Shown in pieces: positions 13,170 to 30,535 of a stretch of DNA of 64,000 nucleotides. The notes under the pieces were generated by a model. That model saw only the letters and a list, made by a program, of their open reading frames with translations, did no database searches and was not told where the DNA came from. Position numbers and translations under genes: made by a program. Source of the DNA: Thermophilibacter immobilis (lineage in GTDB: Bacteria > Actinomycetota > Coriobacteriia > Coriobacteriales > Atopobiaceae); contig NZ_CP063767.1 of the NCBI RefSeq assembly GCF_015277515.1, positions 930,001 through 994,000 on the forward strand, in the 5' to 3' direction. Position 1 is the stretch's first letter. Each line of letters starts with the position of its first letter.

Positions 13170-14780
13170 ATGGTTCTTAAAAGCAAATCGCCCGCGTCGA
13201 GTTCCTCCAAGCGTTCAGGACATGCCGTCACGCGAAGAGACGTCCTGGGTCTCATGGTGGGCGCCGGAGCCGTCATGGTGGGTGCCGTTCCCACAACGGC
13301 GGCCGCAGACGAGACGACTGAGGACACGGAAGACGAGTACGTCGCAAATAGCTGGCGCTACGAGGACGGCCAGCCCATTGATGACGTCGCGCTGATGACT
13401 CGCCTCTCACCTCAAAGCCTTACGACCGCTTGGAGCAAAGACAGCGACGGAAACTGGTGTAATAGCGTTGGTAACCCTATTCCAGGAGCCCCGCTACGTG
13501 GTATTGACGTGAGCGAGTGGCAAAAGGAGGTTGACTGGAGCTCCGCTCAGCAAGATGGAACTGACTATGTGATTATCCGCGCCGCAGCATTTGCGGGATA
13601 CTCAAGCAGCGCAAAGCGGTGGGGCAAGGATTACTGCTGGGATCAGAACGCCACAGAATGCGATAGCCTCGGCATTCCCTACGGGGCCTACATCTATTCC
13701 TACGCCACGAGCGTGGAGGGCGCAGTAAAGGAGGCAGACTATATCCTTAGCCTGCTCAAGGGGCACAGCCCAACCTATCCCGTCTACCTCGACCTGGAAG
13801 ACAACAGCATCTTGGGAGCCGATCTAAACGCGATTGCGAGGGCATTTTGCGAGCGCGTAGAGAGCGCGGGATATCAGGCGGGGGTCTACGCGAACCTGTA
13901 CTGGTGGAACAATTACCTTACGGATACGAGCCTGAGTAACTGGACTCGTTGGGTTGCCCAGTATAACGTCACCTGCGACTATGGTGGACGCTACGACATG
14001 TGGCAGGCTACTAGCAGGGGGAGCGTCGACGGCATCAGCGGCAGCGTTGACATTAATTTTGACTTTGTTGGTCTGAGCAGTGACTATGCGAACCAAACGA
14101 CATGGAGTCGCCTTTACGGTCAGGATCAGCTTGACACCATGCAGCGTATTGCCGAGACGGGCTGGTCCTCCTCAAGCTCCGTTGTCGTTGCTACGCAGGA
14201 TACATTCTGGGATACGCTTTGCGCCAGCTCATTGGCGGGGTCGTTGGACTGTCCTCTTCTTCTTACTTCGTCCAGTTCGCTCTCCTCACAGGCAAGAGTG
14301 GCGCTGCAGGAGCTCGGGGCCACGACCGCCTACGTCGTGGGCGGCCCCGTTGCCGTGTCGAGCTCCGTCGACTCCCAGATACGGGCGGCGGGCTGCCCGA
14401 CCGTGGAGCGCGTCTACGGGCAGGACCAGCAGGGCACCGCGCGGGCGGTGGCCGAGAAGCTCGGTAAAGACCATGCTGACACGTGCATAATCGCCACGTC
14501 ATGGAAATTCCAGGATGCCCTAAGCATCTCTCCCTATGCATACGCATATAAGGTACCCATCTTCCTGTGCGACTCAGGCACAAACGCGCTTGCTGAGGCC
14601 ACGCTTCAGATGATAAGAAACATGGGATTCTCGAAGGCGGTCATTGTGGGTGGTCCCGTTGCGGTTGACAGTGGGGTGGAAGTACAGCTAAAAAAGTCCG
14701 GCATTTCATCTGTTCAACGAGTGTACGGTCAAACGGAATACGAGACGAGCCAGGCCATTGCCGAGTGGGAGCTTGCGTAG
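13170..14780 (+). CDS. Secreted GH25 lysozyme with CWB2 repeats, ended early by an amber codon
   Basis: 536 residues as translated. A twin-arginine-like signal (TRRDVLGLMVGAGAVMVGA) precedes a GH25 muramidase domain at about residues 110-300 (GIDVSEWQKEVDW, YVIIRAA, YPVYLDLED), which cleaves peptidoglycan glycan strands. CWB2 repeats follow (WSRLYGQDQLDTMQRIAETG; VERVYGQDQQGTARAVAEKL; VQRVYGQTEYETSQAIAEWE). TAG at 14778-14780 interrupts the third repeat; the same frame continues to 15023 with the rest of that repeat. The paralogue at 15,106-16,950 has GAG (Glu) at the matching position, so a single G-to-T change explains the stop. The start is an ATG with AGGGAG upstream. Losing the third repeat probably weakens wall attachment. 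Confidence 0.9.
   Translation: MVLKSKSPASSSSKRSGHAVTRRDVLGLMVGAGAVMVGAVPTTAAADETTEDTEDEYVANSWRYEDGQPIDDVALMTRLSPQSLTTAWSKDSDGNWCNSVGNPIPGAPLRGIDVSEWQKEVDWSSAQQDGTDYVIIRAAAFAGYSSSAKRWGKDYCWDQNATECDSLGIPYGAYIYSYATSVEGAVKEADYILSLLKGHSPTYPVYLDLEDNSILGADLNAIARAFCERVESAGYQAGVYANLYWWNNYLTDTSLSNWTRWVAQYNVTCDYGGRYDMWQATSRGSVDGISGSVDINFDFVGLSSDYANQTTWSRLYGQDQLDTMQRIAETGWSSSSSVVVATQDTFWDTLCASSLAGSLDCPLLLTSSSSLSSQARVALQELGATTAYVVGGPVAVSSSVDSQIRAAGCPTVERVYGQDQQGTARAVAEKLGKDHADTCIIATSWKFQDALSISPYAYAYKVPIFLCDSGTNALAEATLQMIRNMGFSKAVIVGGPVAVDSGVEVQLKKSGISSVQRVYGQTEYETSQAIAEWELA
14313..14462. repeat. 150-bp inverted repeat, copy A
   Basis: This segment of the GH25 gene is the reverse complement of 15670-15819 with one mismatch in 150 bp (GTC versus ATC, a Val/Ile codon). 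Outside it the two genes diverge clearly at the DNA level. It encodes the junction of the first and second CWB2 repeats, in frame in both genes. Recent gene conversion or repeated recombination is implied. Confidence 0.95.
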
Positions 14781-15023
14781 GGCATGGTCAGCACCAATAT
14801 GGCCGTTGCAACAGGCGTTACGTTCTATGACGCCCTTACGGGTGGAGCACTCTGCGGCAGGAACAACTCCGTCCTCGTGATCACAAGCGATACGAATCGC
14901 GTCTGTTTGACGGACTTCGTCGCATCTCAGAAAAATGAGGTGGACAAGGGGTACGTGCTGGGCGGTCCCATTGCCGTTTCTGAAGCCAGCTGGATTATCC
15001 TTCTGAGAAACTATCTGTACTAG
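14781..15023 (+). pseudogene. Orphaned C-terminal end of the third CWB2 repeat
   Basis: This stretch is in the same frame as the GH25 gene, directly after its TAG. It encodes the missing part of the third CWB2 repeat: MAVATGVTFYDALTGGALCG, then NNSVLVITSD and GYVLGGPIAVSEASW, ending at TAG 15021-15023. It matches the C-terminus of the convergent CWB2 protein. No ribosome binding site supports independent translation from ATG 14784. It would be used only by stop-codon readthrough, reversion or DNA inversion. Confidence 0.8.
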
Positions 15024-15042
15024 GATTTCTTACGTAGAGACA

Positions 15043-15074
15043 CGAGGGGGCCGAGGAAATCCTCGGCCCCCTCG
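15043..15074. terminator. Bidirectional hairpin between convergent CWB2 genes
   Basis: A perfect 14-bp GC-rich stem (15043-15056 with 15061-15074) closes an AAAT loop, 20 nt after the plus-strand stop and 32 nt before the minus-strand stop. There is no T-tract on either side. Confidence 0.7.
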
Positions 15075-15105
15075 CCTTAGAGAGTCAGAAGCTCAGTGGC
15101 GATTT

Positions 15106-16950
15106 CTAGGAAGTCGCGAGTATGAGCTTCTTCCACACCGAGGAGGAGACGGCGATATTCCCACCAAAGACGTTACCCTCTCCAATCGATGCAGCGTGCG
15201 TGCTTATGAAGCCATCGATGGCAGAGGTGTTCGCATCGCTTGCAAGTACGAGGACGGAGTTGTTCCTACCGCAGAGCGCGGACCCGGTCAGGGCATCCCA
15301 GTAGGTCTCGCCAGTGGCCACTCCCATGCCCGACGCGCTCATGCCCTCGCTCAGGGAAAACTCGGCCAGTGCGGCGCTCGTCTCATATCCCGTCTGCCCA
15401 TAGACCCGCTTAACCGCGCTGCCGGTAAGGCCAAGCGAAGAGAGCTGGGCCTCGACGCTCGATGACACTGCAACGGGGCCGCCGGCAATGATGACACGGG
15501 TGTAACCGCCAGACGAGATGGCTTTGAGCGTCTCCTGGGACAAGGCGTTGGTGGACGTCTCGGCGAGGAAGATGGGCGCTCCCTTTACGTAGGAGTAAGG
15601 GCCAGAGGACAGCGCGTCCTGAAATCCGTTCGAAGTTGCGATAATGCAGGTCGAAGATCGGGCAGAGGAGAGCTTCTCGGCCACCGCCCGCGCGGTGCCC
15701 TGCTGGTCCTGCCCGTAGACGCGCTCCACGGTCGGGCAGCCCGCCGCCCGTATCTGGGAGTCGACGGAGCTCGACACGGCAACGGGGCCGCCCACGATGT
15801 AGGCGGTCGTGGCCCCGAGTCGAGCTATCTCATCTGCTGCTTCCTGAGGCAGAGAATCCTGGCTGCAAAGGAGAATCGGTGCGTCATAGGCACCGGCGAG
15901 CGACGCGGCGGAAAGGGCGTCCCAGTACGTTTCCTGCGTGGCTATGATGACCGTGGAAGATCTGGAGAACCCTGCCTGCGAGATTTCCTCCATGGTCCCA
16001 AGCTGGTCCTGGCCGTAGAGGCGCGTCCATACCTCCGAGCTCTCGGAAAGAAAGCCGAGACAGTCTGCAAGTTCGTTGCGATAGCGATTCTCCCAGCCGG
16101 CCCAATACTGCGATTGCGCGTGGTAGCGAGCCCTGACGTTATCCACCACGAAATTACAAAGGGTTGTGACAAACTGCACGTCGCTCATCGAATCGTTGAC
16201 CCCTGAGTTCTTGATGAACCAGTTGCCACCGTAGTAGTATCCCTGCTTCACATAGCTGGCTCCGCCTCCAGGACCAAACAGGCTGCTCAGGCCCCAGCAG
16301 AGGCCTTTTATGCAATCAGGACGCGAGTCGATGTCGATGCCCATGGCGATCATGCTGCCCCGAACTCCCGTGGAGCCGCTGTAGTACTGGACGTAGGCCC
16401 AGTAGTTCTGGAGCTGCGAGAACTCGGTGGGATTGGCAGCATAGGCCGCGTGCCATGCCGTGTTGAGGTCATTGCCCAGCTGCGTGTAGGCACCGTTGCT
16501 GCGGGTCTCCCCCGTGACATCCCAATCGTAGTTGTCTCCGATCACCTTGAGGCAACTGTATGTCGTGGGGTTGTAGTTATAGACGGCCTCAAGAAACGAT
16601 CCAAGCGTATGGCGGTTGTCGAACTGGAAGTAGCCCAGTGCGTGATAGCCATCCCCATAGCTCAGGCCCTGATCGTAGTTCTGGCCGCTTTCGTACTTGC
16701 AGTGAGAGAGCATCTCTGCGGAAAGCTCCATGGGCTCGATGCTGCTCACGGACCTTGTGGACATGAGGGACATAACCGATGGCGCACTATCCGATACGCC
16801 CATGTCAAAGAAGTCCGTCCTGTCGATTACCGTCCCGTACTGGTCCTCGATAACGTCGGCCGAGGCGGGAGAGGCCCAGAGAAAGGAACAGAGGAATGCG
16901 AGGACGGAGAACAGGATGCCCAAGGTCAAGCTTCTGCGTTTTTGTTGCAT
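15106..16950 (-). CDS. Secreted CWB2-repeat protein with lysozyme-like N-terminal domain
   Basis: 614 residues. A Sec signal peptide (LTLGILFSVLAFLCSFLWASPASA) precedes a ~250-residue domain containing CKYESGQNYDQGLSYGDG and HALGYFQFDNRHTLGSFLEA. This pattern of a Glu-Ser-Gly followed by a Gly-Tyr-Phe-Gln-Phe stretch recalls lysozyme-like or lytic transglycosylase folds, but I cannot assign a family. Three complete CWB2 repeats occupy the C-terminal ~300 residues (WTRLYGQDQLGTMEEISQAG; VERVYGQDQQGTARAVAEKL; VKRVYGQTGYETSAALAEFS), a module that binds secondary wall polymers. ATG 16950 has AGGAGG 6 nt upstream. It converges on the GH25 gene and shares a 150-bp inverted repeat with it. It is probably a peptidoglycan hydrolase. 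Confidence 0.82.
   Translation of the reverse strand: MQQKRRSLTLGILFSVLAFLCSFLWASPASADVIEDQYGTVIDRTDFFDMGVSDSAPSVMSLMSTRSVSSIEPMELSAEMLSHCKYESGQNYDQGLSYGDGYHALGYFQFDNRHTLGSFLEAVYNYNPTTYSCLKVIGDNYDWDVTGETRSNGAYTQLGNDLNTAWHAAYAANPTEFSQLQNYWAYVQYYSGSTGVRGSMIAMGIDIDSRPDCIKGLCWGLSSLFGPGGGASYVKQGYYYGGNWFIKNSGVNDSMSDVQFVTTLCNFVVDNVRARYHAQSQYWAGWENRYRNELADCLGFLSESSEVWTRLYGQDQLGTMEEISQAGFSRSSTVIIATQETYWDALSAASLAGAYDAPILLCSQDSLPQEAADEIARLGATTAYIVGGPVAVSSSVDSQIRAAGCPTVERVYGQDQQGTARAVAEKLSSARSSTCIIATSNGFQDALSSGPYSYVKGAPIFLAETSTNALSQETLKAISSGGYTRVIIAGGPVAVSSSVEAQLSSLGLTGSAVKRVYGQTGYETSAALAEFSLSEGMSASGMGVATGETYWDALTGSALCGRNNSVLVLASDANTSAIDGFISTHAASIGEGNVFGGNIAVSSSVWKKLILATS
15670..15819. repeat. 150-bp inverted repeat, copy B
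   Basis: Reverse-complement partner of 14313-14462 with one mismatch. The 1,207 bp between the copies (14463-15669) contains the C-terminal ends of both convergent genes, and inversion would exchange these ends in frame. Confidence 0.95.
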
Positions 16951-27761: not shown

Positions 27762-29450
27762 ATGTCTCCATTGTCACCTAACATTACGCGCAGAAATGCC
27801 CTCCTGTCTGCCTCGGTTGTTGCCGCCGGGCTTGCCCTCCCGGCCCCGGCCAGAGCTTTTGCGGACGAGCTTCTCGCTTCCTCGGACGTTATCGACTTTC
27901 TCTACATAGACTGCTCCACGCTGACGGCGGGAGACACTCAAAACATCGTCGTTTCCCTGAAGGAGGGGCTAACCTTTCAGGACGCCTCGTTGCAGGTGCA
28001 CAACAGCGATACCGCTGAGGACCTCACCCTTGATTTGGCTGGCTCGACGGACGTCTCCCTGCTGTTTACCTTCGCGCCCGCGACCGTGGGGGAGTACGTG
28101 GTGTCCAGCCTCTCTCTCGTCACGGAAGACGGTCAGAGTCTCGTAGACTTCTCTGACTGTGATGGCTCGTATCGGTCCTTTACGGCGACCTCGGCCATAG
28201 CGGCAATGTCTCTCGAAGTTGAGCCTACCAGCGATGACTCCGAGCCGACGCTTGAGGTCTACTCGGCCGACGAGGACGGCGAGACCATACAGCTCGACTC
28301 CATTGAGGAGGGCATCTCATCCTCTGCGGCAGAAACCTCTGCGACTGTGACTACGATGAGCATGAGGTCCGTCTCCTCCAAGAACCTCGTGGTCGCCCTT
28401 GATCCGGGCCATGTGGCGGTGAGCTCTGGTGCCGTGGGAGTCAACGGTACCACCGAGGCGTCGTGCACTTGGAAGATTGCTCAGTACTGCAAAGCAGAGC
28501 TCGAGACCTATCAGAACGTGAGCGTTGTCCTCACCGTGAGCCAGAGCGAGGCGCTTAGCAGCAGCACGGAGCTCAAGGTGCGCGTTCAGCGAGCGGTCGA
28601 CGCAGGTGCCGACGTCCTCGTGAGCCTTCACCTGAACTCGACCAGCGAGGGAGGCTCGTCAGGCACCGCCTACGGAGCTGAAGTCTGGGTCCCCTACTCT
28701 GCTGACTATAATTATGAAACCCATGTGGTTGGGGAGGCCCTAGGTAATCAAATCCTTGCTGAGCTCGAGAAACTCGGGCTCTCAAATCGCGGCACCAAGG
28801 TAAGGCCAAACGATCGCCATTACACCCAGTATGACTACCCGGATGGCACCATCGGAGACTACTACGGTATCATTCGCTATGCACGCGAGTCGAATCTCCC
28901 TGCCATCATTGTCGAGCACGCCTTTATCAATAATGGGAGCGACTACTATGCTTATTTGAGCAGCGATTCAAAGCTCCAGCGCCTGGGTGCTGCCGATGCG
29001 ACGGGCATAGCAAGCTACTATGGTCTGAGTCAGGTTGAGGGTGCGGTCTACCGTCTCTATAATCCCAACAGCGGAGACCATCACTACACCATGGACTCCA
29101 ACGAATACTCCACGCTTGGGAGTATCGGCTGGAAGCAGGAAGGGGTGGCGTGGATTTCGCCTGACTCTTCTACCACGCCTGTCTATCGCCTTTACAATCC
29201 CAACAGCGGCGATCATCACTATACAATGGACGTTCACGAGTACCAGACGCTCGGGACTATAGGTTGGAAACAAGAAGGTGTGGCTTGGTACTCCGATGAT
29301 GCTCATGGTGTTACCGTCTACCGTCTGTTTAATCCCAACGAGACCGTTGGCACTCACCACTACACCATGGACTCAAACGAGTATGCGACGCTTAAGATTC
29401 TTGGCTGGAAGCAGGAGGGCGTGGCTTGGTACGGAATGTCGGTCGGCTAG
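27762..29450 (+). CDS. Secreted N-acetylmuramoyl-L-alanine amidase with DUF5648-type repeats
   Basis: 562 residues. A twin-arginine-like signal (ITRRNALLSASVVAAGLALP) is followed by a ~170-residue domain of unknown type. An Amidase_3 zinc domain covers about residues 208-425: ALDPGH, the zinc Glu in NGTTEASC, SLHLNS, and the catalytic Glu in IIVEHAFIN. Three ~46-residue repeats of the form VYRLYNPNSGDHHYTMDSNE with GWKQEGVAW, matching DUF5648, end the protein. The enzyme cleaves the amide bond between muramic acid and L-alanine in peptidoglycan outside the cell. ATG 27762 has GGAGG 8 nt upstream. It is followed directly by a glucosaminidase gene carrying the same repeats. Confidence 0.92.
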   Translation: MSPLSPNITRRNALLSASVVAAGLALPAPARAFADELLASSDVIDFLYIDCSTLTAGDTQNIVVSLKEGLTFQDASLQVHNSDTAEDLTLDLAGSTDVSLLFTFAPATVGEYVVSSLSLVTEDGQSLVDFSDCDGSYRSFTATSAIAAMSLEVEPTSDDSEPTLEVYSADEDGETIQLDSIEEGISSSAAETSATVTTMSMRSVSSKNLVVALDPGHVAVSSGAVGVNGTTEASCTWKIAQYCKAELETYQNVSVVLTVSQSEALSSSTELKVRVQRAVDAGADVLVSLHLNSTSEGGSSGTAYGAEVWVPYSADYNYETHVVGEALGNQILAELEKLGLSNRGTKVRPNDRHYTQYDYPDGTIGDYYGIIRYARESNLPAIIVEHAFINNGSDYYAYLSSDSKLQRLGAADATGIASYYGLSQVEGAVYRLYNPNSGDHHYTMDSNEYSTLGSIGWKQEGVAWISPDSSTTPVYRLYNPNSGDHHYTMDVHEYQTLGTIGWKQEGVAWYSDDAHGVTVYRLFNPNETVGTHHYTMDSNEYATLKILGWKQEGVAWYGMSVG

Positions 29451-29488
29451 TTTCGCCGTTGGAATCGTACACACATGGAAGAATATGT

Positions 29489-30535
29489 ATGCTCATGCGA
29501 CGTATTGCTCAGACTACGGCGGTTATCCTTGCAGCTTCAGCCCTGTTTTTTGCGATTCCACTGACAGTTGCACAGGCGATGGAACAAGACTGTGCTGTCT
29601 ATCGTCTTTATAACCCCAATGACGGGGACCATCATTACACAACGGATTCCAACGAGTATGCGACGCTCGCGTCTTACGGTTGGAAGCAGGAGGGGGTGGC
29701 GTGGACTTCGCCTGAGTCGTCTAATACGCCCGTCTACCGTCTCTACAATCCCAACAGTGGCGATCACCACTACACAAAAGATGCCAATGAGTATGCGACG
29801 CTTGCGTCTTATGGTTGGAAGCAGGAGGGTATTGCATGGTATTCGGATGATTCCCAGTCCGTTGCGATCTACCGTCTCTACAATCCCAATGCCACCATCG
29901 GGACTCATCATTACACTATGGATTCTAATGAGTATGCAACGCTTAAGACCCTTGGTTGGAAGCAGGAGGGCGTGGCGTGGTATGCAATAGACACGACATC
30001 CACAGCTAAAACACCCATTATGGGGGCCTCGACCACGACGATCTCCCAGATGGTCTCTTACTACAAGAGCATGGGAGCCACGTATCCCTCGTCTGTCTAC
30101 ACGCAGTACGGCGCCTCGACCATCAAACAGTTCTGCACAATCCTTCTGGAGGAGGCCAACTCCGAGGGGGTTCGTGCTGAGGTCCTCTTTGCCCAGGCTA
30201 TGGTCGAGACGGGTAACTTGCAATTCGGGGGCTCCGTCAAGGTGGCGCAGTGCAACTTCGGTGGGCTCGGAGCTCTCGACGACGGCGGCTCGAGTGCCGA
30301 CTTTAGCTCGTACGGGAGCGACGGCGTGCGCATGGGGCTTCGTGCCCAGGCTCAGCATCTCAAGGCATATGCTTCCACGGCCGAGCCCAACAACACCTGT
30401 GTGGACCCGCGCTTTCAGTATGTCACTCGTGGCTGCGCGCCCCTGGTCGAGGATCTTGGCAGCGGAAAATGGGCGAGCGACCCGTCCTATGCGTCCAAGC
30501 TCCTGCGAGTGATGAGTCTTCTCGCCCAGAAGTAG
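29489..30535 (+). CDS. Secreted glucosaminidase with N-terminal DUF5648-type repeats
   Basis: 348 residues. A Sec signal peptide (RIAQTTAVILAASALFFAIP) is followed by three DUF5648-type repeats (about residues 35-172) nearly identical in style to those at the C-terminus of the preceding amidase. A glucosaminidase domain ends the protein (TIKQFCTILLEEANSEGVRA, QAMVETGNLQFGG with the likely catalytic Glu, CNFGGLGA). It should cleave the N-acetylglucosaminyl linkage of peptidoglycan. ATG 29489 has GGAAG about 7 nt upstream; the frame extends further upstream without a signal peptide. It starts 38 nt after the amidase stop, so co-expression is likely. The repeats probably target both enzymes to the same wall component. 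Confidence 0.9.
   Translation: MLMRRIAQTTAVILAASALFFAIPLTVAQAMEQDCAVYRLYNPNDGDHHYTTDSNEYATLASYGWKQEGVAWTSPESSNTPVYRLYNPNSGDHHYTKDANEYATLASYGWKQEGIAWYSDDSQSVAIYRLYNPNATIGTHHYTMDSNEYATLKTLGWKQEGVAWYAIDTTSTAKTPIMGASTTTISQMVSYYKSMGATYPSSVYTQYGASTIKQFCTILLEEANSEGVRAEVLFAQAMVETGNLQFGGSVKVAQCNFGGLGALDDGGSSADFSSYGSDGVRMGLRAQAQHLKAYASTAEPNNTCVDPRFQYVTRGCAPLVEDLGSGKWASDPSYASKLLRVMSLLAQK

What the first reader, a model, noticed from the sequence alone, without database searches (positions are those of the whole stretch)
13170..16950. Possible invertible DNA switch that swaps the C-terminal ends of two convergent wall hydrolases
Convergent CWB2 genes share a 150-bp inverted repeat with one mismatch (14313-14462 and 15670-15819) that encodes the same peptide in frame in both. 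Recombination between the copies would invert 14463-15669 and exchange the C-terminal ends of the proteins without breaking the frame. In the orientation shown, the GH25 lysozyme carries an amber codon (14778-14780). After inversion it would receive the intact C-terminus of its partner, and the partner would receive the amber. One strain could thus alternate which hydrolase keeps a full wall-binding module. The repeat is nearly identical while the flanks are diverged, as expected from recent recombination. No recombinase gene lies in the window, so RecA-dependent exchange is the simplest route.
Basis: partly seen in the sequence, partly recalled or inferred. Interest (0 to 1): 0.85.

Follow-up and report, generated by a model that had tools for sequence, protein, structure and literature searches.

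The report
Shared DNA patch between two wall-hydrolase genes
Two neighbouring bacterial wall-cutting enzyme genes that point at each other share a nearly identical 150-letter patch inside otherwise very different anchor regions, which is best explained by DNA copying (gene conversion) between them; a flip that swaps their tails is possible but nothing shows it happens.

Summary
In detail: 14313-14462 and 15670-15819 are a 150-nt inverted repeat with one mismatch (Val/Ile), in the same codon phase, in a GH25 lysozyme gene and a convergent gene with a weakly matched VgrG3-like domain, each with three CWB2 domains. Flanking module identity is about 50%. The amber is real; no CUA tRNA was found.

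The evidence favours local gene conversion over an established switch. (1) The closest GH25 orthologue (L032) carries the same tail (99/96), so the present orientation is probably ancestral. (2) The repeat is a GC3 island (48 of 50 codons) inside genes at 0.64 and 0.73, so it was not simply copied from ordinary sequence of either gene; repeated GC-biased exchange or an imported patch would fit. (3) No resolvase-type recombinase was found in the genome; the nearest integrase-type match is about 72 kb away.

Against this: a more distant GH25 gene (G134) has a tail nearer to the partner's. Inversion by homologous recombination is possible and would swap tails in frame (618 and 532 aa). No reads or same-species strains could be tested. 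Anchors of these hydrolases differ across the order, so the patch fits a pattern of anchor shuffling.

The parts
13170..14780 (+). GH25 lysozyme gene with C-terminal CWB2 anchor; 536 aa up to the amber; frame continues open to the stop at 15021-15023
   Evidence: PF01183 5e-24, PF04122 6.9e-30; PDB lysozymes and Cwp6/Cwp8
14778..14780 (+). in-frame amber codon inside the third CWB2 domain of the GH25 gene
   Evidence: the domain 3 match 14718-14984 reads through 1 TAG; no CUA tRNA among 51 found; absent from the orthologue in L032
14109..14369 (+). CWB2 domain 1 of GH25 gene
   Evidence: genome 944109-944369
14409..14681 (+). CWB2 domain 2 of GH25 gene
14718..14984 (+). CWB2 domain 3 of GH25 gene, interrupted by the amber
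14313..14462 (+). repeat copy 1: end of CWB2 domain 1, linker, start of domain 2; GC3 48/50
15670..15819 (-). repeat copy 2 in the partner gene, same codon phase; one mismatch (V/I)
14463..15669 (.). 1207-nt segment that a crossover between the copies would invert
   Evidence: arithmetic; inversion itself not observed
15043..15074. perfect 15-bp-stem palindrome between the two convergent stops; possibly a terminator for both directions (inferred; not among the T-tailed hits)
15106..16950 (-). partner gene: N-terminal signal-like stretch, VgrG3-like muramidase-type domain, three CWB2 domains (15763-16023, 15451-15723, 15136-15408); 614 aa, intact

Best explanation
The repeat is a gene-conversion tract. 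Two old, diverged CWB2 anchor modules lie in inverted orientation 1.2 kb apart, and ordinary (presumably RecA-dependent) homologous recombination has recently copied about 150 bp from one to the other, so a short stretch at the domain 1/domain 2 junction is identical while the rest stays diverged. The patch was already, or became, GC-rich: either repeated exchange with GC-biased repair drove it there, or a GC-rich homologous patch from another lineage entered one gene and was then copied to the other. Shown: the identity, its edges, the GC3 island, and the same head-tail linkage in the closest orthologue. Inferred: copying rather than crossing over, RecA, and the direction (the peptide looks GH25-like, so GH25 to partner is the likelier direction). 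The amber is probably a recent point mutation that leaves this genome's GH25 with an incomplete anchor. A crossover would invert the segment as an occasional by-product, but nothing shows that the cell uses this as a switch.
For: Amino-acid identity GH25/partner is 49-52% before, 98% within and 52% after the repeat. Of 49 identical residues inside, 0 differ in the third base, against 19 of 37 before and 35 of 57 just after. GC3 is 48/50 in the tract against 364/567 in the rest of GH25 (binomial 1e-7) and 413/564 in the rest of the partner (3e-5); the two copies are not independent. AT-ending codons inside the tract occur only at offsets 12 and 22; the nearest outside are at -6 and +50 (GH25) and -1 and +51 (partner). 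The tract peptide is 76% identical to the L032 GH25 orthologue, against 57% and 68% in its flanks. Linkage: the GH25 suffix is sister to the L032 GH25 suffix, 99/96; holding GH25 and partner suffixes together is weakly rejected (p-AU 0.043). A second pair of related anchor modules in the window (two DUF5648 genes, direct orientation) shows no such patch: best 150-nt window 122/150, longest run 20. Precedent: recombination between inverted tuf or kan duplicates gives mostly conversion and some inversion (PMC8262849, passages; PMC5485169, abstract).
Against: No close donor was found for the GC-rich patch: in 140 family genomes the best long match is 71% over 163 nt, besides pieces of 23-48 nt at 77-96% (five candidates scored per genome); in 395 order genomes the best peptide other than its own is 79%. 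The GC3 jump in the partner alone (0.23) is not unusual among window genes; only that in GH25 (0.32) is the largest of 31, and 3 of 105 lower-GC3 genes elsewhere have a jump of 0.31 or more. The linkage argument rests on one close relative; the domain-1 tree is unresolved (GH25+L032 52/76). The more distant GH25 gene of G134 has a tail closer to the partner's (54% against 45%); grouping the three GH25-headed tails is weakly rejected (p-AU 0.037) and partner+G134 is not (0.33) (groups named after seeing the identities). An even number of inversions, or frequent flipping sampled in one state, would look the same.
Confidence: 0.65

Rival explanations
1. Reversible anchor switch: homologous recombination at the 150-bp copies flips 14463-15669 often enough that cells alternate which hydrolase carries a complete CWB2 anchor and which ends at the amber.
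For: Frame, phase, domain order and the central palindrome are all compatible with both orientations. The tail swap would give 618 aa and 532 aa products. A distant GH25 gene (G134) carries a partner-like tail. In C. difficile all three CWB2 domains are reported necessary and not interchangeable in order (PMC5842191, passages), so truncation should matter. Reversible inversions at 16-bp inverted repeats without an adjacent recombinase gene are reported in Eggerthella lenta; its authors suspect site-specific recombination acting in trans (PMC13174815, passages). The tail after the amber has not decayed: 56/80 identical to L032 against 69/105 before it.
Against: The present linkage equals that of the closest orthologue. 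There is no second orientation in any data at hand. In L032 the GH25 gene is intact, and its convergent CWB2 neighbour is a decayed remnant whose repeat-equivalent is deleted, so the arrangement is not maintained there. A single amber in one tail is also what a fresh null mutation looks like.
Confidence: 0.17
2. Site-specific inverton: a tyrosine or serine recombinase acts at a short site inside the repeat.
For: Nine PF00589 stretches exist in the genome. Enzymes can act in trans.
Against: No PF00239 match in the genome at E 0.001. The nearest PF00589 match is about 72 kb from the GH25 gene. A repeat of 150 bp wholly within coding sequence with a GC3 island is unlike short recombinase sites (recalled).
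Confidence: 0.03
3. Constraint, not recombination: the 150 nt are kept identical by selection on protein or DNA.
For: The region is better conserved than its flanks between GH25 and L032 (76% against 57% and 68%).
Against: 0 of 49 shared residues differ in third base between the copies, while 22 of 38 shared residues differ in third base from L032 in the same stretch; protein constraint cannot do that. The tract uses codons that are rare in five GC-rich genes of the window (ATA 0.09, CGG 0.08, GTT 0.06), so codon optimisation is unlikely.
Confidence: 0.03
4. Assembly or consensus artefact at the repeat or at the amber.
For: The repeat is about one short read long, and raw reads were not available.
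Against: The genome is one contig, 99.93% complete. The orientation agrees with the closest relative. The two copies differ at one base, and each keeps its own distinct flanks.
Confidence: 0.04

Closest known systems
Gene conversion and inversion between inverted duplicate genes (tuf genes of Salmonella; kan cassettes)
   Same: Inverted homologous stretches within genes, homogenised by homologous recombination, with inversion as a minority product (PMC8262849 passages, PMC5485169 abstract).
   Different: Here only 150 bp of two otherwise diverged genes are alike, the copies are 1.2 kb apart, and a crossover would create chimeric proteins. RecA dependence was not tested.
GC-biased gene conversion in mammalian X-chromosome palindromes
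   Same: Near-identical inverted arms with higher GC than their flanks (PMC8981503, abstract).
   Different: Bacterial, 150 bp, within coding sequence. GC bias is one of two explanations here; import is the other.
hsdS inversions of type I restriction systems
   Same: Inverted repeats and recombination switch HsdS sequence variants (review passages PMC11868660); that they swap parts of coding sequence in frame is recalled.
   Different: [quoted passage not shown] None lies near here, and no second orientation has been seen.
CwpV switch of Clostridioides difficile
   Same: A phase-variable CWB2 protein; for the two CwpV papers only search listings were seen.
   Different: As recalled, that switch lies upstream of the gene and controls expression by RecV; it does not exchange protein tails.

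Membership tests
CWB2-anchored protein (PF04122) | three CWB2 domains in series | tested here: met
   three in the partner; three in the GH25 frame, the third cut by the amber
GH25 lysozyme | PF01183 over its whole length, above cut-off | tested here: met
   86 bits against cut-off 27, profile 1-180/180
VgrG3-like muramidase domain (partner) | PF21277 above cut-off | tested here: inconclusive
   26.8 bits for the whole protein against cut-off 27, 28.8 for the domain alone, 6 of 6 members of the alignment match; PDB VgrG 4noo E 2.6e-4 with the profile; partial coverage, catalytic residue not checked
Gene-conversion tract between paralogues | sharply bounded identity, including synonymous sites, between otherwise diverged copies in one genome | tested here: met
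Gene-conversion tract between paralogues | donor and recipient inferred from relatives with the unconverted state | tested here: inconclusive
   peptide nearest to the GH25 orthologue; no partner orthologue joined to CWB2 was found among those inspected
Invertible DNA switch | inverted repeats flanking a segment | tested here: met
Invertible DNA switch | both orientations present among cells or strains | not testable with these tools
   no reads; one genome per species held; the closest orthologue has the same linkage
Invertible DNA switch | dedicated recombinase near the segment | tested here: not met

The most novel reading that the evidence does not exclude
A recombinase-free anchor switch: two wall hydrolases of different chemistry share one in-frame recombination patch kept identical (and GC-rich) by long-running exchange, so that inversion swaps their wall-binding tails and an amber in one tail decides which enzyme is firmly anchored. 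More widely, such patches would be the route by which hydrolases of this order trade anchors.
Probability: 0.16. Interest if true: 0.75.

Novelty: new member of a known kind. Interest (0 to 1): 0.4.

Why it matters
If the plain reading is right, it is a clean natural case of gene conversion between diverged inverted anchor modules, with a composition island marking the exchanged patch. It also gives a possible molecular route for the anchor changes seen among wall hydrolases of this bacterial order. If the bolder reading is right, it would be a switch that needs no dedicated enzyme and toggles which hydrolase stays on the wall. The two can be told apart by one PCR or by existing long reads.

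Tried and rejected
Chance repeat: rejected. Protein or codon constraint: rejected on synonymous sites. Amber suppression: no CUA anticodon among the 51 tRNA genes found by RF00005 and read by ARAGORN. Donor search for the patch: own genome 2 places, 140 family genomes, 395 order genomes at E 1e-9, one exact 33-base pattern in viral contigs 0 matches, two protein scans of viral contigs without relatives, plasmids no match with the GH25 gene, phages 8 records with the partner's module, all under 60% identity.

Is the pattern general? In 55 CWB2 ORFs of 12 genomes, 20 in-frame tracts of at least 60 nt and 92% were found: 18 in one CWB2-rich genome (G137), 1 in G036, 1 in G000. GC3 was higher inside than outside in 9 of 10 modules (Wilcoxon 0.01, the two G000 modules included), but the G137 cases look like recent duplicates, most with high GC3 throughout, so I do not use this as proof of GC bias. 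The broader tract search (up to 8 longest pairs shown per genome) also shows short inverted near-identical pieces between CWB2 genes of G134 (57 and 47 nt, 93-94%), a 177-nt 99% direct pair in G137 and a 70-nt inverted pair in G125 that I did not pursue.

Genus relatives: 7 of 31 genus genomes hold CWB2 domains, own included; in the six others the genes lie all on one strand with another architecture, not informative on orientation. G134's partner-like tail then lowered my main odds from 0.68 to 0.65 and raised the switch from 0.15 to 0.17 and the novel case from 0.14 to 0.16. Of the 84 genomes with a module match I inspected only those whose loci were fetched. Structure prediction of the partner without an alignment failed (mean pLDDT 40) and was not used. 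One search failed its positive control (missed the known repeat) and is replaced. In one search the window rows came out empty through a name clash and were redone; its gene list is automatic and includes a few doubtful ORFs. Literature searches listed no report of this locus or of a CWB2 tail exchange by inversion; listings only, most papers there unread.
Full report
WHAT IS THERE. The two arms at 14313-14462 (+) and 15670-15819 (-) are 150 nt long with 149 matches. Both start at codon position 1 of their gene and span 50 codons, covering the end of CWB2 domain 1, the linker and the start of domain 2. The single mismatch changes a codon (Val/Ile), so 49 of 50 residues are shared. Plus-strand gene: GH25 lysozyme (13170-14780, 536 aa to the amber). 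Minus-strand gene: 614 aa (15106-16950), whose N-terminal domain matches VgrG3-like lysozyme domains weakly but in 6 of 6 aligned members. These two genes hold the six CWB2 domains found in the 2.16-Mb single-contig genome, and a search with the repeat found no third copy (40 of 57 candidates scored). Of four inverted pairs of 60 nt or more listed in the window it is the only one above 80%.

THE AMBER. TAG 14778-14780 falls 20 codons into CWB2 domain 3; the frame then stays open to 15021-15023, and the tail still scores as CWB2. The orthologue in L032 (Collinsella sp. AK_207A) has no stop there. All 51 tRNA genes found were read and none has a CUA anticodon. The tail after the amber is as similar to L032 (56/80) as the part before it (69/105), so the stop looks recent. 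In C. difficile, removal of any one of the three CWB2 domains is reported to stop wall binding (PMC5842191, passages), so this GH25 probably binds the wall poorly; that is inference.

CONVERSION, NOT COMMON DESCENT OF THE WHOLE MODULE. Outside the repeat the modules are old paralogues: 49-52% identity before, 52% after. In the repeat no third base differs among 49 shared residues, while 19 of 37 differ just before and 35 of 57 just after. Recent local copying is the simplest account. In the window a second pair of shared anchor modules (DUF5648 in an amidase and in a glucosaminidase gene) shows ordinary patchy similarity, best 122/150, so near-identity is not the local rule.

A COMPOSITION ISLAND WITH THE SAME EDGES. 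The tract has GC3 48/50. The rest of GH25 has 364/567 and the rest of the partner 413/564. AT-ending codons vanish at the repeat's start and return within two codons of its end in both genes; in GH25 the clean run starts about five codons earlier. Among 31 window genes (automatic list) the GH25 jump is the largest (0.32, next 0.25); the partner's (0.23) is not exceptional. In 105 lower-GC3 genes of other loci, 4 reach 0.96 in the 50-codon window with the largest jump and 3 have a jump of 0.31 or more. The level 0.96 is that of GC-rich genes of the same window (five sampled, 0.89-0.96). A simple copy of ordinary sequence from one of the two genes would have kept that gene's GC3, so the patch was GC-enriched either by repeated GC-biased exchange, as argued for X-chromosome palindromes (PMC8981503, abstract), or because it came from a GC-richer homologue. 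No donor was found. I cannot decide between these.

ORIENTATION. The closest GH25 orthologue is L032 (= G209, same order, another family; catalytic part 60%), next to a homologue of the same glycosyltransferase (46%). Its tail is sister to the tail now attached to GH25 in the window (99/96; 68% against 52-57% for GH25/partner and partner/L032). So head and tail are probably in the ancestral combination since that split; either no inversion, an even number, or flipping sampled in this state. L032 also has a convergent CWB2 gene, but it is a remnant in broken frames that lacks the repeat-equivalent stretch and shows no match to the partner's catalytic domain beyond chance. No long inverted repeat between the two remains there.

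A RESULT THE OTHER WAY. Among the loci held, GH25 is joined to CWB2 in four further genomes, at 38-43% in the catalytic part: head first in G134 and G036, anchor first in G352 and G435. The tail of the G134 gene is closer to the partner's tail (54%) than to GH25's (45%). Holding the three GH25-headed tails GH25, L032 and G134 together is weakly rejected (p-AU 0.037), holding partner and G134 together is not (0.33); these groups were named after seeing the identities, and the tree is poorly resolved. So over longer time GH25 heads have probably carried different tails. That fits tail exchange of some kind, by this route or by ordinary transfer. Not all 84 genomes with a module match were inspected.

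ANCHOR SHUFFLING AROUND IT. The partner's catalytic domain (58-67% identity in five genomes) sits on choline-binding repeats in G395 and G090, on DUF5648 in G035 and on PKD in G031. A more distant homologue in G051 (49%) sits on ricin-type repeats, though its domain does not reach PF21277. G089 looks like G090 by sequence but was not scanned over its full length. The glucosaminidase that carries DUF5648 in the window carries CWB2 in G020 and G028. Catalytic parts and anchors thus recombine repeatedly; a shared in-frame patch between two anchors is what would make such exchange easy. That link is inference.

MECHANISM AND ODDS. In Salmonella, recombination between inverted copies gave inversion in 5 of 59 recombinants in one assay and up to a quarter in another (PMC8262849, passages). 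With a repeat of this length 1.2 kb apart, rare inversion is physically plausible and would yield 618-aa and 532-aa products (arithmetic). A recombinase-driven switch is unlikely: no PF00239 match in the genome, nearest PF00589 match about 72 kb from the GH25 gene. Reversible inversions at inverted repeats without an adjacent recombinase gene are reported in Eggerthella lenta, whose authors suspect machinery acting in trans (PMC13174815, passages), so absence of a neighbour gene is not proof. My odds: conversion tract 0.65, used switch about 0.17, the rest spread over site-specific inversion, constraint, artefact and the unknown.

LIMITS. No reads, no same-species strains, one close informative relative, unresolved domain-1 tree, weak assignment of the partner's enzyme.

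Noticed in passing
27762-30535: An Amidase_3 gene and a Glucosaminidase gene overlap by 25 nt and carry the same DUF5648 module at opposite ends (300-nt direct repeat, 76%), so the second gene's module lies right behind the first's.
   Followed up: partly
L071:7266-8837, L073:8907-10505: In two genus relatives the glucosaminidase carries three CWB2 domains instead of DUF5648, next to a second CWB2 gene on the same strand: anchor exchange between species.
   Followed up: partly
L163:4484-6823 (minus strand): A GH25-headed CWB2 gene of another genus (G134) whose tail is closer to the window partner's tail than to the window GH25's tail. Coordinates are those of the reverse complement as printed.
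   Followed up: partly
L032:7946-8912: Decayed convergent CWB2 gene beside the intact GH25 gene; the stretch between domain 1 and domain 2, where the window has its repeat, is deleted.
   Followed up: partly
window genome C1:860794-870757: Several phage-integrase-type matches cluster within 10 kb; could be an invertible or integrative locus of its own.
   Followed up: no
L157:401-470 and 588-657: A perfect 70-nt inverted repeat with high GC in a relative, arms 117 nt apart; which gene it lies in was not checked.
   Followed up: no
window genome C1:1631723-1631814: A selenocysteine tRNA gene is present (ARAGORN).
   Followed up: no
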